A stretch of 64,000 nt of DNA from Clavibacter sepedonicus (GTDB lineage: Bacteria; Actinomycetota; Actinomycetes; Actinomycetales; Microbacteriaceae). The translations under genes were made by a program, and so were the position numbers. The notes under the pieces were generated by a model that ran no database searches, was not told the origin of the DNA, and worked only from the letters and a program-made list of their open reading frames with translations. Shown here in pieces: positions 13,465 to 29,100 of the stretch. The number at the start of each line of letters is the position of its first letter. Positions within the stretch are counted from its first letter, which is position 1. The DNA lies in assembly GCF_000069225.1 (NCBI RefSeq), contig NC_010407.1, positions 2,914,001 to 2,978,000 on the forward strand. Reading direction: 5' to 3'.

Positions 13465-15243
13465 TCACGAACCGCGAGGGAGAAGGCGCTGCATGTGCTC
13501 GCATAGCGCGGGATCGATCACGTGCACGAAGGTCCCGCGGATGCCCCGCGTCATGAGCACCGCGTAGACGTTGCTGATGAGCAGGCGCAGGTCGTCGTCG
13601 GAGAAGGTGATGCCGAGCGTCGGGTTGTTCTCCTGGCCCTTCTTGTCGAAGTAGGAGTCCCGATCCATGAACAGGCGGCCGGCCTCGGGGTCGTAGCGGA
13701 GGTCCGGGCCGATGATCACGCCGGCGTAGTTGAGGTCGTATCCCTGCACGGTGTGGATCGACCCCACTTCCTCCAGTGCATTCGCCGACGCGATCCAGTC
13801 GCGCTGGGTGCTGTTCCATCGCGCACGGTACGCACCGATCTCGATGTCGAAGGCGTGGGGGTCCTTCCTCGACACCCACTCCCACGCGAAGCCCGCGACC
13901 ATGCGCGCGAGCCCGTGCTCCCGATCGCGGTCGCGGATGGCCGCGTGCATGTCACCGACATCGTCGAACATGCGGAGCTCGTAGTCGCCGAGAGCGTCCG
14001 CGGTCAGCGGCTTCTCCGGACGCGGACTCGGCGTCGCGCCGAGGACGCGGCGGATGTACCCGATGTAATCCGTCCCCGCTCTCACGCGCATCTGCGACAT
14101 GAGCGGCTGCCAGCGCCGATCGCGTCGCGCCTCCGCGATGACGCCGTCGATGGTGGACGCGCCGAGGTCGGCGGGCCTGACGCTCTGCGCGGGATCGATC
14201 ATGAGGATCTGGTGGATGCTCTTCGCCCGGATCCAGTCGAGCTGCGTCCTCTGCTTGTCGTCTTCCCCGAAGAGGGCGACCGTGATGTCCTCGAACTTGC
14301 GGTTCAGCGGGCCCGACGCCTGGTTCGCCCGGCGGTTCAGGCGATGCGCCTCATCGACGATCAGGAGGTCGAAGCGTCCGGCGCTCTCGCCGACCTGGAA
14401 GGGCGTCAGGACCTCGACGCCCTGCAATCCGGGGGTCCGGGTGAAGACCTTCTTCACGCTCTCGCGCAGGGACTGCTGCGGGATGACGAACCCGGTCCTC
14501 ATCCCCTGGAGCGCGTCGCGATTCTCGCCGAGGAAGAAGTCGGCGAACAGGGAATCACTGTCGAGCACGTCGTCGACCGGGAGCCGACCGATGTCCGCGA
14601 TCAGCTTGAGCAGGTAGATCCCCACCACGGTCTTGCCGGTGCCGGGCTCGCCCTGGATCACCGTCGTGCTCTCCTTGCCCGCCTGCCGGTCCGTCACCAG
14701 ACTCTCGAGGACCTGCTCCAGCGCGACCTCCTGGTCGGGCGAGAGCGCCTTGAACGGGGACAGCTTGAAGAGGTCGTCGTTCTCGATCTCCGCGATGGAG
14801 CGCTGGAACAGCCCCTCGGATCTCAGCTTCTCGAAGACGCGCTCGAACTCCGCGGTGTAGGTGACGCGGTCGTAGTAGTCCGCGTTCGTGATCCCGATGT
14901 TGCGATTCAGGACGGTATACGCGCCGTCGCCGGAGAAGAGGTTGATGAGCCGCGACTCGAAGTCGAGGCACACGGACTTGTTGAAGTTCTCGCCGACGAT
15001 CACCCGGGCGGTCGCCAGATGTCCGCGCGCGTCGGACTTGAGATGTTGGGCGAGGCGCGCGGCGGCCCGCAGCGATTCCCCCACGTAGAGGTCGTCGCGC
15101 ACGCGACCTCTCGCCCGCTGACCGGAGGGCGGACCGTCGAGGACGTAGACCACGGGCCAGTTCGAGTTGCGCGGATGCTCCGCTCCCCACCGCGCGACCG
15201 CATCGCCGGAGAGCGCGACGCGACGGACGTCAAAGTGCGTCAT
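13465..15243 (-). CDS. GIY-YIG / DUF2075 helicase-like ATPase
   Basis: A 592-residue two-domain protein. Residues ~30-105 look like a GIY-YIG nuclease fold (VVYVLDG, then LYVGES, then an acidic residue in CLDFESRLINLF). Residues ~165-585 form a DUF2075 (Schlafen group 3-like) P-loop helicase/ATPase: Walker A GEPGTGKT at 198-205, Walker B LLIVDEAH, MIDPAQSVRP, and late motifs SIHTVQGYDLNYAGVIIGPD and YAVLMTRGIRGTFVHV. Such GIY-YIG/DUF2075 fusions are often found in defence contexts, but the function is unproven. Its start overlaps the MazG-like gene by 14 bases, so the two are translationally coupled. Confidence 0.85.
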   Translation of the reverse strand: MTHFDVRRVALSGDAVARWGAEHPRNSNWPVVYVLDGPPSGQRARGRVRDDLYVGESLRAAARLAQHLKSDARGHLATARVIVGENFNKSVCLDFESRLINLFSGDGAYTVLNRNIGITNADYYDRVTYTAEFERVFEKLRSEGLFQRSIAEIENDDLFKLSPFKALSPDQEVALEQVLESLVTDRQAGKESTTVIQGEPGTGKTVVGIYLLKLIADIGRLPVDDVLDSDSLFADFFLGENRDALQGMRTGFVIPQQSLRESVKKVFTRTPGLQGVEVLTPFQVGESAGRFDLLIVDEAHRLNRRANQASGPLNRKFEDITVALFGEDDKQRTQLDWIRAKSIHQILMIDPAQSVRPADLGASTIDGVIAEARRDRRWQPLMSQMRVRAGTDYIGYIRRVLGATPSPRPEKPLTADALGDYELRMFDDVGDMHAAIRDRDREHGLARMVAGFAWEWVSRKDPHAFDIEIGAYRARWNSTQRDWIASANALEEVGSIHTVQGYDLNYAGVIIGPDLRYDPEAGRLFMDRDSYFDKKGQENNPTLGITFSDDDLRLLISNVYAVLMTRGIRGTFVHVIDPALCEHMQRLLPRGS

Positions 15244-16771: not shown

Positions 16772-17390
16772 TACGAGGCGCCGACCGGGACGGATGGGCT
16801 GCGCCGCACCTCACCTCACCGCACCTCGTCGTGGAGACGAGGGCGGCTCGACGGACCGGCCGAACCGAGCCCGCTCCGATCAGCTCTGGCTCCGGGCCCG
16901 TGCACCATGCCTGGTCACCGTCCGCGTCCTCCGGGCGCATCACGGTGACCGGCGCCCCGCCCGAGCCGTGTCGCGGCTGGCGTCGCACGTCGGATGATCG
17001 CCGCCGGCGGTCCGGTGGGGCGTGTCCGCGGAGGTGGCGAGTCCCCTGCGCTCGCCGTCGCGGGGCCGTCTTCGGTTGGTCCATCTGTGCTTCCCGCGCG
17101 CGCGCGCCCGCTGACGTCACGGCAACCGATCTCGTTCCGTCCCCGGGGAGATCGTGCGGATGGGGCAGGTCGCTTCGGAGAGCCGACGCATCGCCCCGGG
17201 TGGAATCGCGCGCGGCTTCGATCCGCTCCTCCTGCTCCTCGCGTCTCTCGACGGGCGTCACGGCTGCTGCCTCGACGCTGTCCAGCAGCGCGTTCGGATC
17301 CGTTCCGTCGGCATGAGAGGGGATGCCCGCGGCGCCGATGAAGGCGACTCCTCCTACCAGGACGCCGCCCAGCACCCGGCGGCCCTTCAC
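16620..17390 (-). CDS. Putative exported ORF coupled to the paralog operon
   Basis: No known family. The GTG start overlaps the stop of the upstream paralog gene (GTGA), which argues for real translation. The first ~28 residues make a clear signal peptide (KGRR, then VLGGVLVGGVAFIGAAGI, then a likely SHA cleavage site before DGTDPNALL). The next ~35 residues (LLDSVEAAAVTPVERREEQEE) look like coding sequence. Further on the composition becomes Arg/Pro-rich, and the frame runs 152 bases antisense into the HsdR-like gene, so the true C-terminus is doubtful and a frameshift is likely. Trust the start, not the end. Confidence 0.35.
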   Translation of the reverse strand: MKGRRVLGGVLVGGVAFIGAAGIPSHADGTDPNALLDSVEAAAVTPVERREEQEERIEAARDSTRGDASALRSDLPHPHDLPGDGTRSVAVTSAGARAREAQMDQPKTAPRRRAQGTRHLRGHAPPDRRRRSSDVRRQPRHGSGGAPVTVMRPEDADGDQAWCTGPEPELIGAGSVRPVRRAALVSTTRCGEVRCGAAHPSRSAPRTTRRPRPPRGPGSPRGWCPRARRSRRAIRSGAASRPCARRRARGTSASCR

Positions 17391-17965
17391 GTTCGCTCGG
17401 TCGCCTCGAACGTCACGGCCACGCGACCCTGGAGGGCGGCGATGAGGCGGTAGGCCTCGTCCATCAGGAAGCGCTCGAACGACTGCCCGGTGCGCGCCAC
17501 GCCCTCCTCGATCGCGGCGCGGTCGGCCTCGTCCGCGAGGGCCTCGTCGCGCGTCGCCTCCGCGATCTCCCCGAGCGTGCGTCGGCCGTCGGCTTTGGTG
17601 AGGAACCTGGCGCCATACTCGGTCAGCTCGAACGGCTCGTCGGATCCCGAGCTGAAGCGGTATCCGTCGTCGAGCACCTCATCGAGGATGATGTCCACGC
17701 GCGGCACGGGTATGACGTCCAGGGCCAAGAGAGGTGCGTCGTCGCCGATGAGGGCGACGATGCCGAGCTTCGCGTACCCCACGAGGAGACGGCGCTCCTG
17801 CTCGTCGAGATCCTGGTCGGACAGGGTCGGGTCGATCGACCGCAGCAGCTGGGCCGTCTCCGGCGCGAGCGTGTGGTGCCTGGTCTTCGACGTGAGCGGA
17901 TCCAGCAGTGCGAGGTTCGGCTTGCCCTCGAATTCGCCGATGTACCCGAGCGGGACGACGTGCAT
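17387..17965 (-). CDS. PqqD-like tandem paralog A
   Basis: The last of five tandem paralogs, 192 residues. It begins MHVVPLGYIGEFEGKPNLALLDPLT. A first helical/winged region follows (LAPETAQLLRSIDP to RRLLVGYAKLGIVALIGDDAPL), then PVPRVDIILDEVLDDGYRFSS, then FELTEYGARFLTKADGRRTLGEIAEA. This last segment resembles the DGxRTLxEI signature of PqqD/RiPP-recognition winged helices. It ends EAYRLIAALQGRVAVTFEA. The start is certain: AAGGAGG lies 5 bases upstream. The ATPase frame upstream runs into it without a stop. I do not know its function; the PqqD likeness is my pattern reading. Confidence 0.72.
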   Translation of the reverse strand: MHVVPLGYIGEFEGKPNLALLDPLTSKTRHHTLAPETAQLLRSIDPTLSDQDLDEQERRLLVGYAKLGIVALIGDDAPLLALDVIPVPRVDIILDEVLDDGYRFSSGSDEPFELTEYGARFLTKADGRRTLGEIAEATRDEALADEADRAAIEEGVARTGQSFERFLMDEAYRLIAALQGRVAVTFEATERT

Positions 17966-18104
17966 GGGTCCTCCTTCTCTGTCGTGGGCCTGCTCCGATG
18001 CGTCGCGCATGCTCAGGCGCGCACCCCGGCTGGCGATGCTACCGACGGCGCGGTGCGGCTCGCCGGAGCTCTGCCCCGCGGTCCTCCCGCGACGTGGGCG
18101 ACGC

Positions 18105-19408
18105 CTACGCCGACGGCGCCGCGAACCGGAACCGGACACCGGCGGGCCGTCCGGAATGGCCGCGATGCAGGTCCCCACGCCGAGGCTCGACAGGTCCCAG
18201 TCCTCGACCACCGCCCCTGTGATGACCTCCTCGCGGAGTCCCGACCCGCGCACGGACGCGTCGAAGCGCGTCAGCTTGCGGTTCGCGCCGAAGCGGTCGC
18301 CGACGAAGCGTCGCGAGTCCCCGTCGTAGAGGCGGAACGCGAACACGGATCCGAACGCCGACAGCACCGACGCGGCCATCTCCGGCCCGTACATCTCCTG
18401 CACCTGCTTGACGTTCTGGGTGCCGACGATGAACCGCAGCCCGAGCGACCGGCCGAAGTTCACGCCGTCGGAGAGGTGCGTCAGCTCGGGGAGCAGCGCG
18501 AACTCGTCGAGCACGAAGAACACGCGCCCGCCCGCGCGGCGTCGGGACATGGCCTCCTTCATCGCGACGTCGAGCATGGTCGTGAACACCGGTGCGAGCG
18601 TGCTGCCCGAGGCGATGTCGTACTCGAGGAAGAGCGCCCGCGCGCCCTTCGCGCGGAGGAAGGCGCGGATGGAGAAGTCGCCCGGCCGCCCGAACGACGA
18701 GCGGAACGACTCCTGGATCACCTGCTGCATGAACGCCATCGTCGCCATGGTCGAGTTCGACCCCTCCTTGGCGATGTAGTGCCGCGCGCCGCGGAGGTCG
18801 GCGTTCTCTGGACGGTCCAGCAGCGCGTGCATCTCGGACGTGCCCATGCCGCCGACGATCATGCGGATGTCGCAGTTCGACCGCTCCTCGGATTCCCGGT
18901 ACATCGCGGTGACGAGGGCCGTGAACACGTCGCGCGCCGCGTTGGCGAAGTAGGCGTTGTCGCCGGCGTCGGCAATGAGACGCGAGAACAGGCCACTGCA
19001 CATCTCGAAGATCTCGTCCTCCGGCAGGCGGCCCGGGGGCAGCGCGCGGAACTCCTCGAACAGGTTCCACGACACCTGCCCCGCGAACTCGTCGGCGAGC
19101 GTGGCCGCGATGACCGCGTCACCCGGCCGGTGGAACGTCTCGTGGTAGTCGCCCTTCGTGTCGAACACGACCATCACGTCGTCGGCGGTCATGCTCGCGC
19201 GCACGGAGGCGACGAGCGCGGAGATGCCCACGGTCTTCCCCGTGCCGATGCCGCCGAGGTAGAGCACGTGCCGGCCGGCCATCGCGTCGTCGAACCCGAT
19301 GCTCGTGCCGTCGACGCCGTGGACCCCGAACTCCGCCGGCCGTGGACCGAGATGTCCCGCGCAGTCCCGCAGTGCCATGCCCGAGACCACCTCCTCCGAG
19401 TAGGGCAT
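18105..19408 (-). CDS. VirD4/HerA-like P-loop ATPase, C-terminus probably frameshifted
   Basis: Hexameric-type DNA-translocase-like ATPase related to type IV coupling proteins. From ATG 19408: Walker A GGIGTGKT at ~52-59, VMVVFDTKGDYHETF, Walker B VFFVLDEFALLPEL at ~296-309, and the sensor segment FIVGTQNVKQVQEMYG. It is compact (~434 residues) with no N-terminal membrane helices. At about 18140 the frame becomes Arg-rich and reads straight into paralog A with no stop; one frame over it ends naturally with VRFRFAAPSA and TAG at 18105-18107, which I take as the real end. GGAG lies just upstream of the start. It lies between paralogs B and A in one operon. Confidence 0.7.
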
Positions 19409-19457
19409 CACCACTCCGGGCGCACGGATGCGGGGAGCGTGAGAGGCAGCACGGCGC

Positions 19458-20042
19458 TCACGCCCGTTCCCCGGCGGTCGCTTCGAACGTGATCGCCTCT
19501 CGTCCGCGCAGGGCGGCGATGAAGCGGTAGACCTCGTCCTCGATGTACTCGTCGAACGTCTGCTGCAGCTCCACCTCGCCGACGCGGATCGCGGCCCTGT
19601 CCTCCTCATCCGCGAGCGCCTCCTGCTTGACGGCCAGAGCGATCTCTCCGAGAGTCGTCCTGCCATCGACCCGGGACATGAGGCGCGCGCCGTATTCACT
19701 GAGCTCGAAGGGCTCGTCGACCTCGGAGGTGAAGCGGTAGCCGTCTTCGAGGATGGCGTCGAGGATCACGTCGTATCGAGGGGCCGGGATGATCGGCAGC
19801 TCGGACAGCGGCGCTCCGTCCTCGACGAGCGCGACCATCCGGAGTCCGGCGCAGATTTGGAGGAGGCGACGCTCTTCCGGTGTGAACACGCGGCCGGTCT
19901 CGGTGGGGTCGAGGGAGAGCAGCAGCTCGAGCGCCTCCGGCGTGAGGTCGTAGCTCGCGGCCTTCCGCGTGAGGGGATCCTGGACCGCCATGTTGTGGCG
20001 GCCATCGAATTCGGCGATGTGGCCGAGCTGCACGACGCGCAT
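19458..20042 (-). CDS. PqqD-like tandem paralog B
   Basis: A 194-residue paralog starting MRVVQLGHIAEFDGRHNMAVQDPLT, with LTPEALELLLSLDPTET, EERRLLQICAGLRMVAL, FELSEYGARLMSRVDGRTTLGEIALAV and EVYRFIAALRGREAITFEA. I chose ATG 20042 over the ATG at 20051 because GAGAGG lies 9 bases upstream of the former but directly abuts the latter. It is the gene just before the ATPase (49 bases apart). It carries the same DGRTTLGEI motif as the others; function unknown. Confidence 0.72.
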   Translation of the reverse strand: MRVVQLGHIAEFDGRHNMAVQDPLTRKAASYDLTPEALELLLSLDPTETGRVFTPEERRLLQICAGLRMVALVEDGAPLSELPIIPAPRYDVILDAILEDGYRFTSEVDEPFELSEYGARLMSRVDGRTTLGEIALAVKQEALADEEDRAAIRVGEVELQQTFDEYIEDEVYRFIAALRGREAITFEATAGERA

Positions 20043-20088
20043 GTCGTTCATCCTCTCGAGGGTGCTGTGGGTGAGATGCCCTGCGTGC

Positions 20089-20739
20089 TCATTCGCCGGA
20101 CTCGCCCGCCGGGGAGAGTCTGCCTGTCTCCGCGTGACCCGGACTCGGCTCCTCCACGGCCACGGGGATCGTGTGCGGCTCGAACGAGACCGCCTCGTTC
20201 CCGCGGAGGGCCCGGATGAACCGATACGCCTCGGCTTCGAGGAACTCGCCGAATGACGCACCCGACTCCCGCTCCATCTCCTCGACGGCGGGCCGCTCCT
20301 CCACGCGGTCGAGGGCTTCCTGGTGGACAGCGGAGACGATCTCCGCGAGGCTCCGCTCGCTGTCGGCCATCCCGAGGAATCGGGTGCTGTGCTCGCTCAG
20401 CTCGAATTTCTCGCCGAGCGTCGACGTCAGCTGGTAGCCGCTGTCTGTCATCCCGACGAAGCTGATGTCGGCACGCGGGACCGGGATGAACGTGAGCTCG
20501 TCGACGGAGTCGTGGTCGCTGGTGAGGGCCACGATGCCCAGGCGCGCGAAGCCGCGGAGGTAGTGCCACTCCTCCGGCGTGAAGTCGTGCACCGTCTCGG
20601 TCGGGTCGAGTGACTGCAGCAGCTCGAACATGGGGTGCTCGAGCCGGTATCCCTTCCTCTCCCTGGTGCGCGGATCCTGGAGGGTGACGTTGGGCGCGCC
20701 GTCCACCTCACTGAGATATCCGAGTTGCACGACGTGCAT
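20089..20739 (-). CDS. PqqD-like tandem paralog C, most divergent
   Basis: A 216-residue paralog starting MHVVQLGYLSEVDGAPNVTLQDPRT, with LEHPMFELLQSLDPTET, EEWHYLRGFARLGIVAL, IPVPRADISFVGMTDSGYQL, FELSEHSTRFLGMADSERSLAEIVSAV and EAYRFIRALRGNEAVSFEP. The central motif has changed (ADSERSLAEI instead of DGRRTLGEI), and a ~20-residue Pro/Glu-rich tail is added. The start is fixed by AAGGAGG 5 bases upstream; an ATG seven codons earlier overlaps the stop of gene D and would cover the ribosome site. Confidence 0.72.
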   Translation of the reverse strand: MHVVQLGYLSEVDGAPNVTLQDPRTRERKGYRLEHPMFELLQSLDPTETVHDFTPEEWHYLRGFARLGIVALTSDHDSVDELTFIPVPRADISFVGMTDSGYQLTSTLGEKFELSEHSTRFLGMADSERSLAEIVSAVHQEALDRVEERPAVEEMERESGASFGEFLEAEAYRFIRALRGNEAVSFEPHTIPVAVEEPSPGHAETGRLSPAGESGE

Positions 20740-20756
20740 GTCGTCCTCCTTCTCGC

Positions 20757-21344
20757 TCATCGGCAGGTTCGTGCGGGCGCGGGCTCGAACGTCACCGTCG
20801 GATTCCCGCGGAGCGCGTCCACGAAGCGGTACGCCTCGGCCACGAGGAAGTCCTCGAAGCTCTGGCCGTGGGTGCGCTGGTGCTCCGCGATCTCCGCGCG
20901 GTCGCCCTCGTCGGCGAGGGCCTCCTGACGGACGGCCTCGGCGATCGTTCCCAGGTCCGTGCGGCCGTCGACCTTCTCGAGCAGGCGGGTCCCGTACTCG
21001 CTCAGCTCGAACGGCCGATGGAGGTCGGAGTCGAAGCGGAAGCCGTCGTCCAGCGCTGCGTCGAAGCGGACGTCGGCGCGGGTCACGGGGATGAAGCGGA
21101 GATCCCCGAGCGGCGCGTCGTCGGCGACCAGGGCGACGACCCCCAGGCGGGCCATGCCGGCGACCAGGCGGGACTCCTCCTCCGTGAACGCCCTGTCGGT
21201 CTCGCGGGGGTCGAGCGAGGGCACCAGATCCGCGAGGGGTGGGCTGAGCCGGTAGCTCCTCGCCTCCTCGGTGGACGGATCCTGCACCGTGACGATGGGG
21301 CCGCCCGCGGAGTCGCTGAGGTGGCCGAGGGGTACGACGTGCAT
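20757..21344 (-). CDS. PqqD-like tandem paralog D
   Basis: A 195-residue paralog starting MHVVPLGHLSDSAGGPIVTVQDPST, with LSPPLADLVPSLDPRET, EEESRLVAGMARLGVVALVADDAPL, IPVTRADVRFDAALDDGFRFDS, FELSEYGTRLLEKVDGRTDLGTIAEAVRQEALADE and EAYRFVDALRGNPTVTFEP. It ends within a few bases of the ribosome site of gene C, so the two are coupled. It is a close match to A, B and E over the whole length. Confidence 0.72.
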   Translation of the reverse strand: MHVVPLGHLSDSAGGPIVTVQDPSTEEARSYRLSPPLADLVPSLDPRETDRAFTEEESRLVAGMARLGVVALVADDAPLGDLRFIPVTRADVRFDAALDDGFRFDSDLHRPFELSEYGTRLLEKVDGRTDLGTIAEAVRQEALADEGDRAEIAEHQRTHGQSFEDFLVAEAYRFVDALRGNPTVTFEPAPARTCR

Positions 21345-21384
21345 GGTCTGCTTCCGTTCGGTGGTGGTGCGCGGGTCCAGGGAC

Positions 21385-21981
21385 CTAGGTGGCGGGCTCG
21401 TCCACCGGGCAGGCGCTGCCCGGCTCGAGGCTCAGGGCGGGATGGCCGATGCACGCCTTCGCGAACCGAAACGCCTCAGCCCGGAGCAGATCGTCGAACG
21501 AGATGCCGCGACGCTCGTCCTCCTCGATCTCCCGGCGCTCATCGTCATCGGCGAGCGCGCGGTCCCGGACGCTCTGCATGATCTCGCCGAGGGTGCGCCG
21601 GCCGTCCGCCTCGTGCAGGAACCTCGCGCCGGACTCGCTCAGCTCGAAGGGACCCCCGAGCTCGGAGGTGAGCCGGTACCCCTCCTCGAGCGCCGCGTCG
21701 AAGAGGATGTCGGCCCGGGTGGCGGGGATGAAGTCGAACCGCGTGAACGGCGCGTCATCCGGGACGAGGGCGATGACGCCGATCCCGGCCATGTTGCGGA
21801 GGATCCGGCGTTCATCCGCCGTGAAGGGCTGATCGGCGGCGACCGGGTCGACGCGTCGGATCAGGTCGAGCAGCCGCGGCGTGAGGGTGTAGCTCCGGGC
21901 CTCATCCGTCACGGGGTCCTGCACCGTGATGTCCGGTGTCGGTTCGGAGTCGTGGAGCTGTCCCAGTTGTATGACGTGCAT
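21385..21981 (-). CDS. PqqD-like tandem paralog E, first of the array
   Basis: A 198-residue paralog starting MHVIQLGQLHDSEPTPDITVQDPVT, with LTPRLLDLIRRVDPVAA, ERRILRNMAGIGVIALVPDDAPF, IPATRADILFDAALEEGYRLTS, FELSESGARFLHEADGRRTLGEIMQSV and EAFRFAKACIGHPALSLEP. AGGAGAG lies 7 bases upstream of the ATG. It is the promoter-proximal member of the array, 44 bases after the PH-like membrane protein. Confidence 0.72.
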   Translation of the reverse strand: MHVIQLGQLHDSEPTPDITVQDPVTDEARSYTLTPRLLDLIRRVDPVAADQPFTADERRILRNMAGIGVIALVPDDAPFTRFDFIPATRADILFDAALEEGYRLTSELGGPFELSESGARFLHEADGRRTLGEIMQSVRDRALADDDERREIEEDERRGISFDDLLRAEAFRFAKACIGHPALSLEPGSACPVDEPAT

Positions 21982-22025
21982 GTGTCTCTCCTGTCTCGTG
22001 CCTGATCCGCGATCCGTGGGGACGG

Positions 22026-22799
22026 TCAGTCCCAGGACCCCGCGAGCTTGCCGCGCGCCTGGGCGTCGAGGATCAGCGCGCCGGCCTCGAACGAGATGCG
22101 GTCGAGGTCGTCGGTGCGGATGTAGAGGCCCGCGTCCGATGCGCTGACGATGCCCAGCTCCCGCGCCAGCACCCAGAGCGCCGCGCTGAGGATCGCGATG
22201 GGCCCCAGCGCGACGAACAGGACGAGCACGAACAGGATCTTCGCCACGTCGTGCCGGGTGGTGATCTCCTGTCGCTGGCTGCCCGTGATCACGCTGAGGA
22301 CGGCCGCCCTGCTGCGGAGCACGAAGAACCCGATCACCCCGAGGACGAGGGCGAAGAAGGTTCCCACGCCGAACAGCCACGCGAGGCCGTCGAGGCTGGA
22401 GGAGCCGGCGCCCACGAGCACCAGCCAGGCGATGAGGCTGACCAGCAGGTTGATCGCGGTGCCGGCGAGCGCCGCCACGCCCAGCGCGTCGTAGCCGGTG
22501 TCGCGGCCCACCTCGATGCCGTCGACCTTGTCGATCTTGTACTCGCGCGAGTAGGTGGACGAGGATGTGACCGTCTTGGCCTCGGCCGAGTAGATCACGC
22601 GGGAGTCCGTGACGAAGAGGTAGCTCACCAGCCGGCCGAGCGGTCGGGTGCGGCGCGCGACGGGGTAGGTGCCGAGCACGGTCTCGTCCGGCAGCAGCCG
22701 GAACGGATGCGTCGGCGAGCCCGGGGCCGTGACGCCTCCGCCGCCGTCCTCGACGATCGGCTTGGTCGCGGCGTCGTCATCCATCTGCGGTTCGAACAT
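22026..22799 (-). CDS. Membrane protein with PH-like domain
   Basis: A 257-residue protein. An acidic N-terminus is followed by a region that looks like a bacterial PH-type fold (LLPDETVLGTYPVARRTRPLGRLVSYLFVTDSRVIYSAEAKT, YKIDKVDGIEVGRDTGYDALG). Three or four membrane helices come next (LGVAALAGTAINLLVSLIAWLVLVG, LFGVGTFFALVLGVIGFFVL, ILFVLVLFVALGPIAILSAALWVLA). The C-terminal ~30 residues (DDLDRISFEAGALILDAQARGKLAGSWD) form a soluble tail. It starts 4 bases after the lipoprotein stop and leads into the paralog array, so it appears to be the membrane base of the same operon. Function unknown. Confidence 0.7.
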   Translation of the reverse strand: MFEPQMDDDAATKPIVEDGGGGVTAPGSPTHPFRLLPDETVLGTYPVARRTRPLGRLVSYLFVTDSRVIYSAEAKTVTSSSTYSREYKIDKVDGIEVGRDTGYDALGVAALAGTAINLLVSLIAWLVLVGAGSSSLDGLAWLFGVGTFFALVLGVIGFFVLRSRAAVLSVITGSQRQEITTRHDVAKILFVLVLFVALGPIAILSAALWVLARELGIVSASDAGLYIRTDDLDRISFEAGALILDAQARGKLAGSWD

Positions 22800-22803
22800 G
22801 CGG

Positions 22804-24816
22804 TCAGGCTCCCCAGGTGTCGGTGCGGTCGGTGGTGCGTGTGGTGGTGGACGTCGTGGCCGAGGTGGGTCGGGCGTCTAGGAGGGTCGGTCCCGGGACC
22901 GGGACCGTGCTGCGGGGCGGCGGGGCCATGGCCAGTGCGCCGCGATGGGGTGGCCCGCTGACCACCTCGGGCGGCGGATCCACGTCGAGCGCACCCGTGA
23001 GGACGCCGGCCATGGCAGACGGGGCCGGGAACGCGAGCAGCGAGCCGTGCTCCACCGCGTCGGCGCCGAGGGATGGCTCGATCGGGAGCCGCTCGTCGAG
23101 CCGGGTCCGGCGTCGCGCGGCCAGCGCTGCGTCCAGCCGCGCCCGTGCCGTGGCGACGCGCGCCGCCACCGCCCGTCGACGCCGGATCAGGAGCGCGAGC
23201 CCGACGGCGAGCGCGAGTGCCAGGACGGCCACGGCGGCGACGCCCGCCGGCGTCAGGCTGCTGGTGCGGACGACGGTGATCCGGGCGCCGTCAGCGCCCG
23301 AGCCGCCCTGCGCCCCGGCGACCCACGAGCCGAACGGGAGGTCCAGCGTCACGTCGGTGCCGTCGAGGACGCGGTGCCCGGACGCGAGGGCGTCGAAGCC
23401 GGGGTCGATCGCGTACTCCGAGTGCTGGACGAGGAGCCCGTCGTCCACCAACCGCGCCCCCACGGACGCTCCCGGGGCCCACCGCGCGTAGCGGTCCGTG
23501 AAGTCCTCGACGCTCGAGCCCGCGATGGACACGGTGTAGGTCGTGCTGTCCGGTCCCGCGTCGGAGGCGATCGTGCCGACGTCCGGATCCGGCCGGTATC
23601 GCTGCAGGAACCCGTCCCCGACAGCGTCGGCGCTGGACTTCGGGACGACGATGGTGGTCGTGCCGGTGACGTTGCCGCTGGAGCCGATGGAGAGGTGCGA
23701 CGCGAGCGAGGAGATGGGTGGGCTGAGCACGAAGCTCACGGGGCCGGCGGTGGTCGACCCCACGTCCATCGACCCCACGTCCATCGACTCCGGGGAGTAG
23801 TCGGCGCCTGCGGTGAAGCGATCGGGCACCCCGCTGCGCCCGATGGCGTCGACGGCGCACACGGCCGCGCACGACGCCGTGTCGGTGAGCTGCATGACCT
23901 CCTGCGACGGGTCGTCCGCCCGCGGGGAGATGTCGACCGCGAAGCGCGTGGCGCCGCCGCCGAGCGCGGTCGTCGTGTCCGCCTGGATCGCCGCCGCGTC
24001 GCCGGTGAAGGCCAGCGTCCATGTGCCCGGCTCGGGCGCGGCGACCTCGCCTCCCGCCGGGACGGCGCCCCGGACGAACGCGTCGAGCCGCGCCAGGTCG
24101 GCCTGGTCCCTTCCCTGCTCGGCGCGGAACGTGATGGTCCGCGTGATGCGCCCCGGGTCGGATGCGTCCGTCGCCATCGAGACGCCGTCGAAGCCGTGGT
24201 TCTCCTCGTGCGAGTACGAGAGCGGATCCCCGACGTCCGCGTGCCGCTCTCCCGCGAACACGATGGCCGCGCGGCCCTCCTCGCGCAGCGATCCGACGCC
24301 CTCGCTGCCGTCCACGACGCTGTCCGCGATCAGGCCGGAGAACATCCACCCCAGCAGGTCGCTGCTCGTGAACGACTCCTGCAGCTCGATGCCCTGCACG
24401 AGAGCGGAGTCGGTGACCGCGAGCCGGGGCGCGGACGAGCCCGTGCGCGAGGAGAGGAGCGCGGCGACCTCGCCCGAGTAGTCCGCGGGAGACGAGAACG
24501 CGAGCGTGAAGGTCGCGGTGATGCCGCCGTCGGCCGTCGCGGAGATGCCCGAGTAGGCCAGCGGGGACGGCAGGTGCCGGCGGATGGACGCGTCGATGGC
24601 GGCCGAGCCGCCCGGGACCTTAGCGAGGTCCTGCTGGTTCAGCGTGACGGTCATCTGCCGGGAGCCGGATCCGCCGGCGTCCACGGACATCGTGGTGTCG
24701 ATCACCGCCCCGCAAGCGCTGAGGGCGAAGGCGATGACGATGCCCAGCACGGCGGCGGCGAGGCGGCGGCGCCCGCGCGCCCCCGGCGCGTCTCGGGTCG
24801 GTCGGCGCCTCGCCAC
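22804..24816 (-). CDS. Large membrane-anchored lipoprotein, LppM-like N-terminus
   Basis: About 670 residues. A basic head and hydrophobic stretch end in a lipobox (AFALSAC, with Cys as the lipidation site). The following domain (DTTMSVDAGGSGSRQMTVTLN, FSSPADYSGEVAALLSS) resembles the LppM-type actinobacterial domain. Much of the protein is extracytoplasmic beta-rich sequence with two close cysteines (SCAAVCAVD). A second membrane helix near residue 545 (GVAAVAVLALALAVGLALLIRRRR) leaves a ~120-residue cytoplasmic Pro/Thr-rich tail. The start is uncertain: GTG 24816 is the closest sensible codon, but no strong ribosome site is visible. A 15-bp repeat encodes SMDVGSMDVG near 23755-23790. It heads the paralog/ATPase operon. 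Confidence 0.65.
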   Translation of the reverse strand: MARRRPTRDAPGARGRRRLAAAVLGIVIAFALSACGAVIDTTMSVDAGGSGSRQMTVTLNQQDLAKVPGGSAAIDASIRRHLPSPLAYSGISATADGGITATFTLAFSSPADYSGEVAALLSSRTGSSAPRLAVTDSALVQGIELQESFTSSDLLGWMFSGLIADSVVDGSEGVGSLREEGRAAIVFAGERHADVGDPLSYSHEENHGFDGVSMATDASDPGRITRTITFRAEQGRDQADLARLDAFVRGAVPAGGEVAAPEPGTWTLAFTGDAAAIQADTTTALGGGATRFAVDISPRADDPSQEVMQLTDTASCAAVCAVDAIGRSGVPDRFTAGADYSPESMDVGSMDVGSTTAGPVSFVLSPPISSLASHLSIGSSGNVTGTTTIVVPKSSADAVGDGFLQRYRPDPDVGTIASDAGPDSTTYTVSIAGSSVEDFTDRYARWAPGASVGARLVDDGLLVQHSEYAIDPGFDALASGHRVLDGTDVTLDLPFGSWVAGAQGGSGADGARITVVRTSSLTPAGVAAVAVLALALAVGLALLIRRRRAVAARVATARARLDAALAARRRTRLDERLPIEPSLGADAVEHGSLLAFPAPSAMAGVLTGALDVDPPPEVVSGPPHRGALAMAPPPRSTVPVPGPTLLDARPTSATTSTTTRTTDRTDTWGA

Positions 24817-24969
24817 AGGGTGCACGCGGCGGCTGACCTGATCATGCGCTGAAAGTAGCGGCAGCCGACGGCCGGCCACCGGGGTTCTCCACGGCGGGGG
24901 CGGCATCCAGGGCGCTCGCGTGCGCCGTCGGGGTGCACGCGGCCGAGGCGATCCGCGTCTAGGGCTCCG

Positions 24970-25302
24970 TCACGCGCTCAGCGCGTCAGCGATCCGCGGG
25001 AACTCCACCGCGACCACGCGCCACAGCACCTCCATGTCGGTGCCGTCGTAGTCGTGGGCGACGTAGTTCCGCACCGCGCGGATCCCGCTCCAGTCGATCT
25101 CCGGGCGGGCGTCCCGGAAGGAGGCGGGCAGCCGGTCGGCCGCGCTCGAGAGGTCCACGACGAGCGAGCGCGCGATGCGGCGCTGTTCGTCGTCATCGGG
25201 GTCGACGAAGCGCGCATGGCCGCGCGCCGTCACCCGTCGGGCGGAGGCAGCGAACCGCGCGATGTCGGCGAGGAGCGCCGGCACGCGTTCCTCGTCGATC
25301 AT
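24970..25302 (-). CDS. hepT: HepT-like ribonuclease toxin
   Basis: A 110-residue HEPN-family protein (DUF86), the toxin of HepT/MntA systems, which acts as an RNase. The active-site motif Rx4HxY is intact in RNYVAHDY. The surrounding helices (ALLADIARFAASARRV, RIARSLVVDLSSAADRLP, WSGIRAVRNYVAHDYDG) are typical. Its ATG overlaps the last base of the MntA stop (TGATG), so it is translationally coupled downstream of its antitoxin. The family call is strong; activity in this host is inference. Confidence 0.88.
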   Translation of the reverse strand: MIDEERVPALLADIARFAASARRVTARGHARFVDPDDDEQRRIARSLVVDLSSAADRLPASFRDARPEIDWSGIRAVRNYVAHDYDGTDMEVLWRVVAVEFPRIADALSA

Positions 25303-25763
25303 CAGAGGGCCACGGCCTCTGCCCGGATGCGGTCCATCATCGGTCCCGAACCCCGGTCGGAGACCACGTCGACGTCGATCCCCAGCAGCGCGGCTACCTC
25401 AGCCATGAAGCCCGCGAGGTCGAAGAGCGATGCATCCGCCGCGGGATGCACGAGGAGGTCGAGGTCGGATCCTGCCGCGGCATCTCCCCGCGCGACGGAT
25501 CCGAAGACGCGGACGTCGCTGAGGCGGCGCCGAGCGGCGACCTCGAGGATGGGACCTCGGGATGCGCGGACCCGGTCGAGCGACGGCGCCCGGAGCGCGG
25601 CGCCGAGTCGGACGAGGGTCTCGGGCGACGGCTGCCGGCGCCCGCTCTCGTACGCTGCGATGTTCGGCTGCGGCACGCCGGTCACCGCGGCGAGCTCGCG
25701 CTGTGAGAGGGCGGCCTCGCGGCGGAGGCGGCGCAGCTCCTCACCGACGGACGCATCGCTCAT
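25302..25763 (-). CDS. mntA: MntA-like nucleotidyltransferase antitoxin with XRE DNA-binding domain
   Basis: A 153-residue fusion. Residues ~6-60 are an XRE/Cro helix-turn-helix (EELRRLRREAALSQRELAAVTGVPQPNIAAYESGRRQP). Residues ~75-150 are a minimal nucleotidyltransferase with the GS...DxD signature (FGSVARGDAAAGSDLDLLV). In studied HepT/MntA pairs this enzyme AMPylates the tyrosine of the Rx4HxY motif to silence the toxin. The HTH would let it repress its own promoter, a role stand-alone MntA proteins lack. It lies 40 bases beyond the 3' end of tRNA-Arg. Confidence 0.88.
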   Translation of the reverse strand: MSDASVGEELRRLRREAALSQRELAAVTGVPQPNIAAYESGRRQPSPETLVRLGAALRAPSLDRVRASRGPILEVAARRRLSDVRVFGSVARGDAAAGSDLDLLVHPAADASLFDLAGFMAEVAALLGIDVDVVSDRGSGPMMDRIRAEAVAL

Positions 25764-25802
25764 GCCCGCGATGATAGCGGCTCGATATCGCGATGCGGAG
25801 GG

Positions 25803-25874: not shown

Positions 25875-26116
25875 TGACCGGCCCATGGTAGCGGAGCCCC
25901 GCCCGCGCGATCGAGAGCAGGCCGCCCGTGACGAGCCCGGGGACGAGCGTCGCCACGAGCGCCGCCGCGCCCGCCGGATCCACCCCCGCGCCGCCCCGCC
26001 TGCCGGTTTCCCCACCCGTCGCGTCGTACTGTTGCCGGGTGTGGCGTGCCAATGAACGATCCGACGACGACGACCTGCTCTCCGGGTTCGCCGCCGAGCA
26101 TCTTGAGGACCCCCAC

Positions 26117-29100
26117 GTGAACGCTTCCCACAACAGCACCAGCCCCCACGACCTCCGCGTCGGCGACGTGCAGCTCGGGAGCGGCAACGTGGCCGAGCCC
26201 CGCTGGCGCGAGTGGCGGGAGCAGCTGGCCGGCATCGGCGGTCCCTCTCCTCTCCTCCATTTCGTGGACGCTCCCGGCTCGCGCATCGAGCTGAGCACGA
26301 CGCATCCCGGCGGGCTCGCGCAATTCATCACGGGCAAGACGACGCTGCTGTCGTCCCTGATCCGCGACGACCTCGCGCTTCGCAGCGCCCGCAAGGCCGC
26401 CAACCGCATCACCCAGAAGGGCATCGAGCTGGTCTCGGCCCGCGGCATCGAGTCGATCCACCTGGCCATCGGCCTCGCCGAGTGGCGCTTCGCCGACGAG
26501 CAGTTCCGCGCGCCCGTGCTCCTGCGCCCGCTCGCGATCCGCCGCCACGGCAGCGACTACGAGGTGCGCCTCAAGGGCCAGCCGTTCCTCAACCCGGCGC
26601 TCGCGCGAGCGCTCGAGGAGCAGTTCCAGATCACGCTCGACGCCGAGTCGTTCGTCGCCCTCGCCGTGCAGAACGGCGCCTTCAAGCCGCAGCCCGTCAT
26701 CGACCGCCTGCGCGGACTCACCTCGCACCTCCCCGCGTTCGCCGTGCAGCCGCGCCTCGTCGTCTCCTCCTTCGCGGAGGTGGGTCGCGCGCTCGCCGAG
26801 GACGCGGAGCACCTCGACCACCTCGTGATCGACGCCATCGCCGGCAACCCGACGGCGAAGTGGGGCGTCGGCGAGGCGTACGCGCCCGTGGATCCGATCC
26901 CGCAGGACCAACGCCCGCCCGTCACCGACACCCTGCTGCTCGACGCGGATCCCGAGCAGGAGTACGTCATCGCGCAGATCAACGCGGGCAACTCGCTCGT
27001 GGTGACGACGCTCCCCGGCACGGGCGGCACGCAGACCATCGTCAACTCGATCGGCTGCCTCGTCGCGCAGAACAAGCGCGTGCTCGTCGTGAGCCCCCGC
27101 GCCTCCTCGCTCAAGGGCATCGGCCAGCGCCTCGCGGACGTCGGCCTCCCCGGCCTCGCGGTCGCGCCGAAGTCGCTGAAGCGCGACGTGGTGCAGTCCA
27201 TCGTGCGCAACGAGAAGGCCGCGCCCGCGCAGACCGCCGAGGTCGACGACGCCCTCGTGCGCCTCCGCCATGTGCTGCTCGACTACCGCTTCGCGCTCGG
27301 CCGCCCCGACAAGGACCTCGGCGTCTCCGTGCTGGACGCGCTCGGCGAGCTGTCCCGTCTCGCCCTCCTGCCGGATCCGCCGGCCACCACCGCGCGCCTC
27401 ACCCGCGACGCCGTGACGGCCATCGCGCACGACCGCGCGAGCGCCGCCGCGTCCCTCGTCAAGGCCGCGAGCCTCGGCGAGTTCCGCTACGGCCCGGGCG
27501 ACTCGCCCTGGTACGGCGCCACCTTCTCCACCAGCGCCGCCGCGACCCACGCGCACGACCTCGCGAAGTCGCTGTCCGCCGACGGCCTGCCGCGCCTCCT
27601 CGAGCGCGCCGACGAGCTCATCGGCCAGACGCGGATGCGCGCGTACAAGTCGATCGACGAGCTCGGCGTGTACCTGCGTCTCCTCCTCGACGTCCGCGAG
27701 ACGCTCGACAAGTTCCAGCCCGTGGTGTTCGACCGGTCGCTCAGCGAGATCATCGCGGCCACCGGATCCCGCCGCGACGCCCCCGAGATGACGAGCATCA
27801 CCCGCCGTCGCCTCCGCAAGCTCGCGCGCGAGTACGTGCGCCCCGGCGTCCACATCTCCGACATGCACGAGAGCCTCAAGGCGATCCAGAAGCAGCGGAT
27901 CCTGTGGCAGCGCTACGTCGCCGTCGGCTCCACCCCCGAGGTCCCGCGCGGCATCTCCGACGTGCACGTGCGCTACCAGGAGGTCGCCGCCGACCTCAAG
28001 GTGCTCGACGCGCCGCTGAGCATGCTGACCCGTCCCACCCCGCTCGGCGAGCTGCCCGTCGACGAGCTGCGCGAGAAGGTCGCCCAGCTCGCCGAGGACA
28101 GCGAGGTGCTGCAGAACCTGCAGGAACGCACCTCCCTGCTGGCGGAGCTCCGCCGCCTCGACCTCGATCCGCTGCTGCGCGACCTCTCCGACCGGCACGT
28201 GCCGCAGGAGGCCGTCGCCGCCGAGCTCGAGCTCGCCTGGTGGCAGTCCGTGCTCGAGCAGATGCTCGCGGGCGACAAGGCGCTCCTCAACGCGAACACG
28301 AGCGTGCTCGACCGCCTCGAGTCCGACTTCCGCCTCGTCGACGAGGCGCATGCCACGGCCAGCGCGGGCCTGCTCGCGTGGCAGCTCGCGGAGACGTGGA
28401 AGATCGGCGTGGTCGACTGGCCCGAGGAGGCGCACCACCTGCGTCAGCTGCTCGGCGGATCCGCCCCCGTCGACGCCGCGGCCCTCCACCACTCCGCGCC
28501 CCACCTCTCGCGCACCATCGCGCCGGTCTGGCTCGCGTCGCCCTACGAGGTGCCCGCGATCACCGACGAGATGCCCTTCGACGCCGTGTTCCTGGTCGAC
28601 GCCGGCGCCATGACGCTCGCGGAGGCCCTCGGCGGCATCCGGCGCGGCAAGCAGACCGTCGTCTTCGGGGATCCCGTCACGCAGACGCCGTCGCCGTTCA
28701 CCATCGCGGTGGTCCCGCAGTCGGAGCGCTCCACGCCCCAGCTCGCGGACGACGACTCGACGCTCGAGGAGCGCCACGCCGACTCCGCGCTCGCGCGCCT
28801 CGGCGAGCTGCTGCCCACGCTCTCCCTCACGCGCAGCTACCGCGCGGGTGGCGAGGACCTGGCCGAGCTCGTCAACCGCCGCTTCTACGGCGGCCGGATC
28901 CAGTCCCTCCCGTGGGCGGGCACGTTCCTCGGCCACGGCAGCCTGTCGCTCGACTTCGTCGCCGACGGCCACGGCATGCCCGACGAGGACACCGGAGCCG
29001 TCGAGAGCGTCGACGCCGAGGTGATCCGCGTGGTGGAGCTCGTGCTCGACCACGCGAGCCACCGCCCGCGCGAATCGCTCATGGTCATCACCGCGAGCGC

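What the first reader, a model, noticed from the sequence alone, without database searches (positions are those of the whole stretch)
17387..24816. Five PqqD-like paralogs with a VirD4/HerA-like ATPase and membrane partners: possible undescribed system
Seen: five tandem genes of 192-216 codons share MHVVxLG starts, an IPxxRAD segment, an FELSExGxRxL...DGRxTLGEI core and an EAYRFIxALRG ending. A compact P-loop ATPase sits between the fourth and fifth. A PH-like membrane protein and a large LppM-like lipoprotein lie directly upstream on the same strand with short gaps. Known: DGxRTLxEI is the PqqD/RiPP-recognition winged-helix pattern, and VirD4/HerA ATPases pump DNA or protein. Inference: a membrane complex in which diverged recognition proteins present partners to the ATPase, perhaps for export, competition or defence. 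No radical-SAM or cyclodehydratase gene is visible, so an ordinary RiPP cluster is unlikely.
Basis: partly seen in the sequence, partly recalled or inferred. Interest (0 to 1): 0.85.

Follow-up and report, generated by a model that had tools for sequence, protein, structure and literature searches.

The report
Mobile motor-and-adaptor envelope gene cassette
A discrete block of genes that comes and goes in Clavibacter combines a DNA/protein-transfer type motor, surface proteins and a row of look-alike peptide-gripping proteins; it looks like an undescribed membrane machine, but what it does is not yet known.

Summary
Five paralogs A-E (192-216 aa), a cytosolic TrwB/VirD4-family ATPase, a three-TM protein and an LppM-like lipoprotein form one minus-strand block. 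It is a discrete insert of about 8.2 kb: 5 of 18 Clavibacter genomes carry it, and 5 others show its flanks nearly joined. It is not a RiPP cluster.

The window copy is incomplete. Relatives carry a gene P, overlapping D's stop, encoding a protein with an N-terminal hydrophobic segment and an acidic Glu-Pro tail; the window keeps only a scar. E and F (a sixth paralog in relatives) are likewise followed by small partners. Curtobacterium and Paenibacillus plasmids carry related chassis genes. Between two Curtobacterium plasmids the motor is 97% identical, but the 210-aa gene before P is 26% and P's N-terminus 32%.

Best reading (0.4): RRE-like adaptors deliver cognate anchored proteins to a coupling-protein-type motor at the membrane. 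Rivals: effector-immunity competition, phage defence, DNA transfer. No substrate, channel or phenotype is shown, and the plasmid 184-210 aa genes match the paralogs by position, not sequence.

The parts
16772..24968 (.). Inserted cassette, about 8.2 kb; absent from 13 of 18 Clavibacter genomes
   Evidence: flanking genes in 18 of 18 and 17 of 18 genomes; in L087 window position 16772 is followed by 24969, in L083/L084/L085/L089 16771 is followed by 24994 after about 35 bp
22804..24816 (-). LppM-like lipoprotein (lipobox LSAC) with a C-terminal TM helix; GTG start uncertain
   Evidence: (hydrophobic windows 31 and 536 of a stretch with 10 extra upstream residues)
22026..22799 (-). Membrane protein, three hydrophobic segments, 'PH-like' by eye; relatives in Curtobacterium and Paenibacillus plasmids
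   Evidence: (no Pfam)
21385..21981 (-). Paralog A, double winged-helix, PqqD/RRE-like (fold modelled for D)
20757..21344 (-). Paralog B
20089..20739 (-). Paralog C
19458..20042 (-). Paralog D; modelled at pLDDT 92.4; only paralog over the Pfam PqqD cut-off
19409..19457 (-). Scar of gene P (adaptor partner with acidic Glu-Pro tail), deleted here; a similar scar in L027
   Evidence: relatives L026 and L028 carry P of 243 and 219 aa ending DPEPEW at this point
18160..19408 (-). Cytosolic TrwB/VirD4-family ATPase without TM domain; given to where it was aligned with relatives; its frame continues past the usual end into E
17387..17965 (-). Paralog E
17130..17390 (-). Small partner of E with a hydrophobic N-terminus, start overlapping E's stop; frame departs from relatives after about 87 residues (end approximate)
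   Evidence: 158 aa in L026, L028 and L029

Best explanation
The cassette encodes an envelope-associated machine of Gram-positive (monoderm) bacteria. Double winged-helix adaptors (A-F) act like RiPP recognition elements: each grips the N-terminal or juxtamembrane segment of a cognate small anchored protein encoded directly behind it (P after D, p after E, p' after F) and brings it to a TM-less coupling-protein-type ATPase. The three-TM 'PH' protein supplies the membrane seat that the ATPase lacks, and the LppM-like lipoprotein is the outer-face part. ATP hydrolysis then translocates, assembles or displays the Glu-Pro-tailed P protein. SHOWN by sequence: gene set, order, precise insertion, paralogy, ATPase family, predicted fold, overlap of D-P, E-p and F-p'. 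INFERRED: adaptor-partner binding, ATPase-membrane protein pairing, membrane topology, direction of transport. The window copy, lacking P and with two altered frames, is probably partly or wholly inactive; the G015 copy (L028) looks complete.
For: Insert boundaries coincide with the gene set. All five Clavibacter copies keep the order lipoprotein-PH-adaptors-ATPase-E, though L026 lacks B. D-P, E-p and F-p' starts overlap the adaptor's stop, and partner N-termini resemble one another (38-55% over 82 residues). A second genus (G100) has lipoprotein 39%, PH 44% and ATPase 74% identical with a P-like acidic gene, Glu-Pro tail ending DPEPDW. Curtobacterium plasmids carry lipoprotein (45% to the window's), PH (42%), ATPase (70%), a P-like gene and, before it, a 207-210 aa gene, overlapping P in pS16. 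Between two of these plasmids lipoprotein, PH and ATPase are 83, 95 and 97% identical, the 207-210 aa gene 26% and the P N-terminus 32%. Paenibacillus plasmids have a PH relative (BLASTP 2e-7, hhalign 1.7e-6 over 79 columns), ATPase (37%), two 184-198 aa genes and a Glu-Pro-rich protein. Adaptors are acidic, pI 4.4-4.7, which fits peptide rather than DNA binding. A distant paralog relative (E 5.7e-21) lies in an element with a VirB4-like ATPase. Precedents read in passages: coupling proteins without TM domain that may pair with another membrane protein (PMC7431656); RRE order (PMC12710340).
Against: No translocation channel is seen in the insert. G100 has no adaptor next to its ATPase. A, B and C have no partner gene behind them. 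Co-diversification rests on one pair of plasmids; the start of P in pCPAA3 is uncertain, and the gene upstream of that cassette is also only 49% identical. Several copies are broken, so the function is dispensable. That P and p are anchored rests on one hydrophobic window each; G100's and Paenibacillus' P proteins have none.
Confidence: 0.4

Rival explanations
1. Interbacterial competition module: P and p are effectors delivered through the coupling-protein-like ATPase by their C-terminal tail, and the adaptors are their immunity proteins, A-C being orphan immunity genes.
For: Variable N-terminus plus shared C-terminal tail in P, a diverging gene directly upstream of P, tandem paralogs 44-56% identical to D with varying copy number. 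In X-T4SS the immunity gene usually lies upstream of the effector, and the effector C-terminus binds VirD4 (PMC6536674, passages).
Against: No recognisable toxin domain in the two P proteins scanned (L030 and L028; one search gave one low-complexity match below cut-off and one insignificant match; the Curtobacterium and Paenibacillus P proteins were not scanned). Clavibacter P has only about 115 residues before its repeat. No secretion channel seen. The adaptors have no signal-like N-terminus, although PMC6536674 mentions cytosolic immunity forms too.
Confidence: 0.2
2. Anti-phage defence: adaptors sense phage peptides, the ATPase is the signalling or DNA-acting motor, and anchored P/p proteins are the effectors.
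For: The insert sits between conserved defence-candidate genes (PDC-S37 1.8e-96, Schlafen-group helicase, HsdR_N) and beside an HTH/MntA-like and HepT-like pair. G100's copy lies beside ApeA (PF18862 2.2e-52). The ATPase weakly matches MADS mad8 (5.1e-15) and HerA models.
Against: None of the adaptors, PH or lipoprotein matches any PADLOC model at E 1. No nuclease or NADase seen in the insert. A lipoprotein with an outer-face domain would be unusual for cytosolic sensing (general knowledge). The Curtobacterium and Paenibacillus copies are on large plasmids.
Confidence: 0.2
3. A DNA-transfer accessory (conjugation, uptake or exclusion): the ATPase is a DNA pump and the winged helices bind DNA.
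For: TrwB-family motor; large plasmids; NlpC/P60 and ssb genes near the Curtobacterium copy; a distant adaptor relative in an element with a VirB4-like ATPase.
Against: Adaptors are strongly acidic (pI 4.4-4.7). No relaxase or integrase seen in the insert. The four plasmids are typed non-mobilizable.
Confidence: 0.1
4. A decayed RiPP cluster that lost its modifying enzymes.
For: RRE-like fold and small partner genes.
Against: No modifying enzyme seen in the insert or in the stretches read of the four other Clavibacter copies; the motor and membrane genes are conserved instead.
Confidence: 0.03

Closest known systems
PqqD / RiPP recognition elements (e.g. lasso peptide B1 protein TbiB1, 5v1u/5v1v)
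   Same: C-terminal unit has the strands-then-three-helices order; Pfam PqqD over cut-off in D; TbiB1 best two chains prob 0.94-0.96, TMt about 0.6
   Different: Two linked units per protein, tandem paralogs, no modifying enzyme seen; the first unit has only two helices; Foldseek E 0.14-0.21 is not significant alone
Type IV coupling proteins (TrwB/VirD4/TraD), above all those without TM domain (TraJ of pIP501, per PMC7431656)
   Same: Walker A/B core, TrwB_AAD_bind over 336 residues, no TM segment
   Different: No channel, relaxase or other VirB genes seen in the insert; usual partners are the lipoprotein, PH protein and acidic P
X-T4SS effector/immunity pairs (PMC6536674)
   Same: Gene pair, upstream partner then protein with a shared C-terminal tail, linked to a VirD4-type ATPase
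   Different: No toxin domain found in the two P proteins scanned, no T4SS seen; XVIPCD not tested
M. tuberculosis LppM (2nc8)
   Same: Best fold match of the lipoprotein (E 3.0e-4)
   Different: Longer, with apparently three repeated units and a C-terminal TM helix; low-confidence model

Membership tests
RiPP recognition element (strict definition, PMC12710340) | beta-beta-beta then alpha-alpha-alpha order | tested here: met
   residues 84-178 of D, strands then helices 116-122, 131-144, 146-159 (and 163-178); the first unit (2-73) has only two helices and does not meet it
RiPP recognition element (strict definition, PMC12710340) | Match to curated PqqD model PF05402 | tested here: inconclusive
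   over cut-off in 1 of 5 (D, 24.2 vs 23.4); A, B and E 15.0-19.5, below; C none
RiPP recognition element (strict definition, PMC12710340) | Binds a leader or follower peptide | not testable with these tools
   Coupled partner genes exist; binding untested
RiPP gene cluster | Modifying enzyme (radical SAM, YcaO and others) beside precursor and RRE | tested here: not met
   None seen in the insert or in the stretches read of the 4 other Clavibacter copies; no family search for such enzymes was run on the genome
Type IV coupling protein | Nucleotide-binding domain with Walker A and B | tested here: met
   GGIGTGKT (G-I-G-GKT positions invariant in 6 rows) and LDEF invariant; PF10412 9.6e-43
Type IV coupling protein | All-alpha domain | tested here: inconclusive
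   PF10412 aligns across residues 40-375, which spans that region; no structure was made of the ATPase
Type IV coupling protein | N-terminal TM domain (most, not all, members) | tested here: not met
   No hydrophobic window
Type IV secretion system | VirB4-type ATPase and channel subunits with the coupling protein | tested here: not met
   No other gene seen in the insert; not searched genome-wide
Known anti-phage systems (PADLOC 2.0.0) | Component models matched by the set | tested here: not met
   7 of the 8 cassette proteins given have no match at E 1; ATPase only weak mad8/HerA hits
Integrative element or genomic island | Discrete insertion at a shared site | tested here: met
Integrative element or genomic island | Own integrase and att repeats | tested here: not met
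   No integrase among its genes; no repeat seen at the junctions by eye, no repeat search was run
X-T4SS effector/immunity | Toxin domain and XVIPCD | tested here: inconclusive
   no toxin family in the two P proteins scanned; XVIPCD was not tested

The most novel reading that the evidence does not exclude
An undescribed, horizontally mobile machine of monoderm bacteria, found in Actinomycetota and Bacillota, in which rapidly diversifying double-RRE adaptors select cognate acidic-tailed membrane proteins and load them onto a conserved, TM-less coupling-protein motor seated by a separate membrane protein: peptide-recognition folds used for protein trafficking instead of peptide modification.
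Probability: 0.3. Interest if true: 0.85.

Novelty: categorically new. Interest (0 to 1): 0.62.

Why it matters
If right, RRE-type peptide recognition is used outside RiPP biosynthesis, as an interchangeable adaptor layer for a T4CP-type motor in single-membrane bacteria. The Curtobacterium plasmid pair (nearly the same motor, different 207-210 aa gene and P N-terminus) is a ready natural swap experiment. The term 'categorically new' refers to the gene assembly, which matches no named system among those I could search (Pfam, NCBIfam, PADLOC; ten literature searches, in open-licence PMC papers only); its folds are known and its function is open.

Tried and rejected
Rejected: ordinary RiPP cluster (no enzymes seen). 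Winged helices as DNA binders (pI 4.4-4.7). Phage origin: the Paenibacillus and Clavibacter ATPases have no match in 50,697 phage records, and none of 126 pattern-matched stretches in viral contigs encodes a relative. Chance similarity of the paralogs (E 6.4e-45 or better).

Led nowhere: sequence comparison of the Curtobacterium and Paenibacillus 184-210 aa genes with the adaptors; internal-duplication test of the adaptor by hhalign (E 0.32, although the short aligned stretch is in the register expected of a duplication); viral fold library (no match at E 0.001); adaptor D on plasmids (no match); adaptor profile against PDB sequences (only PqqC/D 5sxy at E 0.27); sigma-70 scan (0 promoter-like sites). 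The first SF1-helicase tree was wrong because part of the sequences were in reverse orientation; it was remade and only that one is used.

Weak matches not followed: 6 of 9 family genomes, E 0.001-0.008.

Rows dropped before counts: the broken A copies of L026 and L029 and the broken E copy of L029 were left out, B is absent from L026, and the intact E copy of L026 was left out too. In one search I had translated E of L026 past its stop and dropped it as if broken; one search shows 192 residues to its stop. It is also missing from alignment A3. and alignment A7 used a lipoprotein stretch with 10 residues upstream of the GTG start given here.
Full report
What is there. The window is G000:C2:2914001-2978000 of a 3.4-Mb genome. 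Its nearest named relatives are Clavibacter: loci L001 and L002 are records named Clavibacter sp. VKM Ac-2872 and Ac-2873, with the contig lengths of G013:C7 and G012:C10. On the minus strand, in this order, lie an LppM-like lipoprotein (24816-22804), a three-TM protein (22799-22026), paralogs A, B, C and D, a TrwB-family ATPase (from 19408), paralog E and a small ORF. D finds A, B, C and E and nothing else in its genome at E 0.001. In L028, where all five are intact, paralogs A-E are 42-52% identical to one another; with F of L027 added, pairs reach 58% (D-F) and 70% (E-F).

It is a discrete insert. The SF1-type helicase gene on one side is present in 18 of 18 Clavibacter genomes, and the HsdR_N-like gene on the other side in 17 of 18, two of them partial. 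The paralog model finds the cassette in 5 of 18. Twelve of the 13 genomes without it were fetched across this site (G004 was not). In L087 window coordinate 16772 is followed, after 5 bp, by 24969; in L083, L084, L085 and L089 16771 is followed by 24994 with about 35 bp between. In six others (L079-L082, L086, L090) the HsdR_N-like gene is followed, after 0 to about 580 bp, by sequence matching from 25783-25800 on, so the HTH/HepT pair is missing as well; L088 lacks the HsdR_N-like gene. So the insert is about 8.2 kb and ends where the gene set ends. No integrase was seen in it. On a tree of the flanking helicase the five carriers do not form one group: G012+G013, G003, G000 and G015 sit apart, two of them paired with non-carriers at support 0.97 and 1.00. 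Repeated gain or loss is therefore likely.

The paralogs. Pfam PqqD is over its cut-off only in D (24.2 vs 23.4 bits); A, B and E score 15.0-19.5 and C none. AlphaFold2 with 24 rows gives pLDDT 92.4 and pTM 0.89: strands 2-32, helices 35-43 and 55-66, strand 70-73; then strands 84-114, helices 116-122, 131-144, 146-159 and 163-178, strand 184-188. The second unit meets the strict RRE order of strands then three helices (PMC12710340, passages read); the first has only two helices. That paper also warns that Foldseek gives many false positives for this small fold. Foldseek against the PDB has no match at E 0.001 or better. The best are a mycobacterial methyltransferase, Rv2067c (E 0.0075, prob 0.99), and the carbamoyltransferase GdmN (prob up to 0.93); among small targets it is the RRE TbiB1 bound to its leader peptide (best two chains prob 0.96 and 0.94, TMt 0.61 and 0.62, E 0.14 and 0.21). 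That supports, but does not prove, an RRE relationship. All paralogs are acidic, pI 4.4-4.7.

The ATPase. PF10412 E 9.6e-43; F-type TraD 1e-22, far below its cut-off; TrwB structure 1.8e-16. It has no TM window. Coupling proteins without TM domain, which may or may not pair with another membrane protein, are a described class (PMC7431656, passages). In the window its reading frame leaves that of its relatives in the last residues and is open into E. I describe this and do not mend it.

What the window copy lacks. In L026 and L028 a gene P (243 and 219 aa) starts inside the stop of D and ends, with DPEPEW, at the ATPase start: a short hydrophobic N-terminus, a segment DPEALLDGIEAVAVTPTERREEL, then a Glu-Pro repeat. 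In L029 a transposase gene lies within P. In the window and L027 only a scar of about 50-80 bp remains. E is followed in the same overlapping way by p (158 aa in L026, L028 and L029; altered in the window and L027), and the sixth paralog F by p' (113 aa, L027 and L029). So both P-less copies also have an altered p: 2 of 5 genomes, too few to weigh. Copy L028 (G015) looks complete. A is broken in L026 and L029 and E in L029; E of L026 is intact; B is missing from L026.

Wider distribution. The adaptor model at E 0.01 gives 9 of 349 family genomes: own, two strong (G292 5.7e-21, G320 5.6e-18) and six weak. The ATPase is rare: 2 of 249 and 2 of 398 family genomes, both times own and G100; 1 of 394 of the class; and 2 of 346 of the phylum at 1e-15, the second (G807) a distant one among unrelated genes. 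The four other Clavibacter carriers were not in these draws, since they would have matched, and only a few candidates per genome are scored, so these are lower bounds. G100, another genus, has lipoprotein 39%, PH 44%, a 500-aa Glu-Pro protein ending DPEPDW and ATPase 74%, but no adaptor beside them. On plasmids, 1030 of 72,556 records match the ATPase, 844 of them typed conjugative; the best are two Curtobacterium plasmids at 70% and two Paenibacillus plasmids at 37% over the full length.

The plasmid copies. Curtobacterium pS16 and pCPAA3: lipoprotein (45% to the window's), PH (42%), a 207-210 aa gene, P with Glu-Pro tail (RefSeq annotates the opposite strand there in pS16), ATPase. Between them lipoprotein 83.4%, PH 94.8% of aligned residues (91.2% by tblastn), ATPase 97.2%, but the 207-210 aa gene 26.2% and the first 200 residues or so of P 32.0%; the last 60 residues of P are 69.0% and the gene upstream of the cassette 49.1%. 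The start of P in pCPAA3 is uncertain. Paenibacillus pY5S7-1 and pART37: a zinc-ribbon protein whose first part is related to the PH protein (BLASTP 2e-7; hhalign 1.7e-6), ATPase, two genes of 198 and 184 aa, and a Glu-Pro-rich protein of 620 aa in pY5S7-1. I treat them as positional counterparts only.

Relatives of the adaptor elsewhere. In G292 the relative (31% to D) follows a 114-aa hydrophobic protein, and about 13 kb further on lies a VirB4-like ATPase (PF12846 1.2e-11). In G320 it is followed by an ORF with a hydrophobic segment near its apparent start.

How it may work. The repeated adaptor-then-partner gene overlap, the likeness of the partners' N-termini, and the joint divergence of the upstream gene and P's N-terminus in an otherwise near-identical Curtobacterium cassette are best explained if adaptors recognise their partners. 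The only motor is of the coupling-protein kind, whose usual work is to take up selected substrates at the membrane. I therefore favour adaptor-loaded export, assembly or display of P (0.4). The competition and defence readings (0.2 each) remain open: the setting is a defence-candidate region in both chromosomal cases, and the gene layout is similar to X-T4SS effector/immunity pairs (PMC6536674, passages).

Literature. Ten searches of open PMC text found no paper that holds PqqD with TrwB, LppM with VirD4 or the three terms RiPP recognition element, PqqD-like and winged helix. PqqD with polymorphic toxin gave 1 genome paper, and RiPP recognition element with type IV secretion gave 2 papers that look unrelated from their listings. 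Searches listed nothing on this system as far as titles and abstract starts show. Subscription papers were not searched.

Noticed in passing
window 24970-25763: HTH plus MntA-like nucleotidyltransferase followed by a HepT-like gene, a likely toxin-antitoxin pair just outside the insert; matching sequence at 6 of the 12 empty sites fetched.
   Followed up: partly
window 13465-15243 and 25928-29842: Schlafen-group helicase and a DUF4011/MTES_1575 helicase-nuclease (PDC-S37, 1.8e-96) frame a conserved defence-candidate region.
   Followed up: partly
L033 8551-9825 (NZ_CP126255.1): RefSeq gene annotated on the strand opposite to P; the P frame, coupled to its neighbours and with relatives, is more likely the real one.
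   Followed up: partly
L030 11102-16078 (G100): ApeA gene (PF18862) and a large protein with a sub-cut-off nSTAND_NTPase5 match downstream of the G100 cassette.
   Followed up: partly
L041 4163-12632 (G807): Distant ATPase relative among genes that look by eye like a vWA (TerY-like) protein, a PP2C phosphatase, a protein kinase and a transglutaminase; names not tested.
   Followed up: no
L031 8501-12678 and L091 3774-7279 (G292): Distant adaptor relative inside a conjugative-looking element with a VirB4-like ATPase.
   Followed up: partly
L029 10810-11769: Transposase gene inserted in P in G003.
   Followed up: no
L026, L029 (A) and L029 (E): Frame breaks in A near residue 109 in two genomes and in E near residue 88; not known whether real or sequencing errors.
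   Followed up: partly
L095 13936-48001 (NZ_CP043762.1): dpd (deazaguanine DNA modification) genes downstream of the Paenibacillus pART37 cassette.
   Followed up: no
L036, L037: Haloarchaeal plasmids with a TrwB-type ATPase carrying a hydrophobic N-terminal region (by eye) behind a small gene, annotated relaxase in L037: a different context for the same motor family.
   Followed up: no
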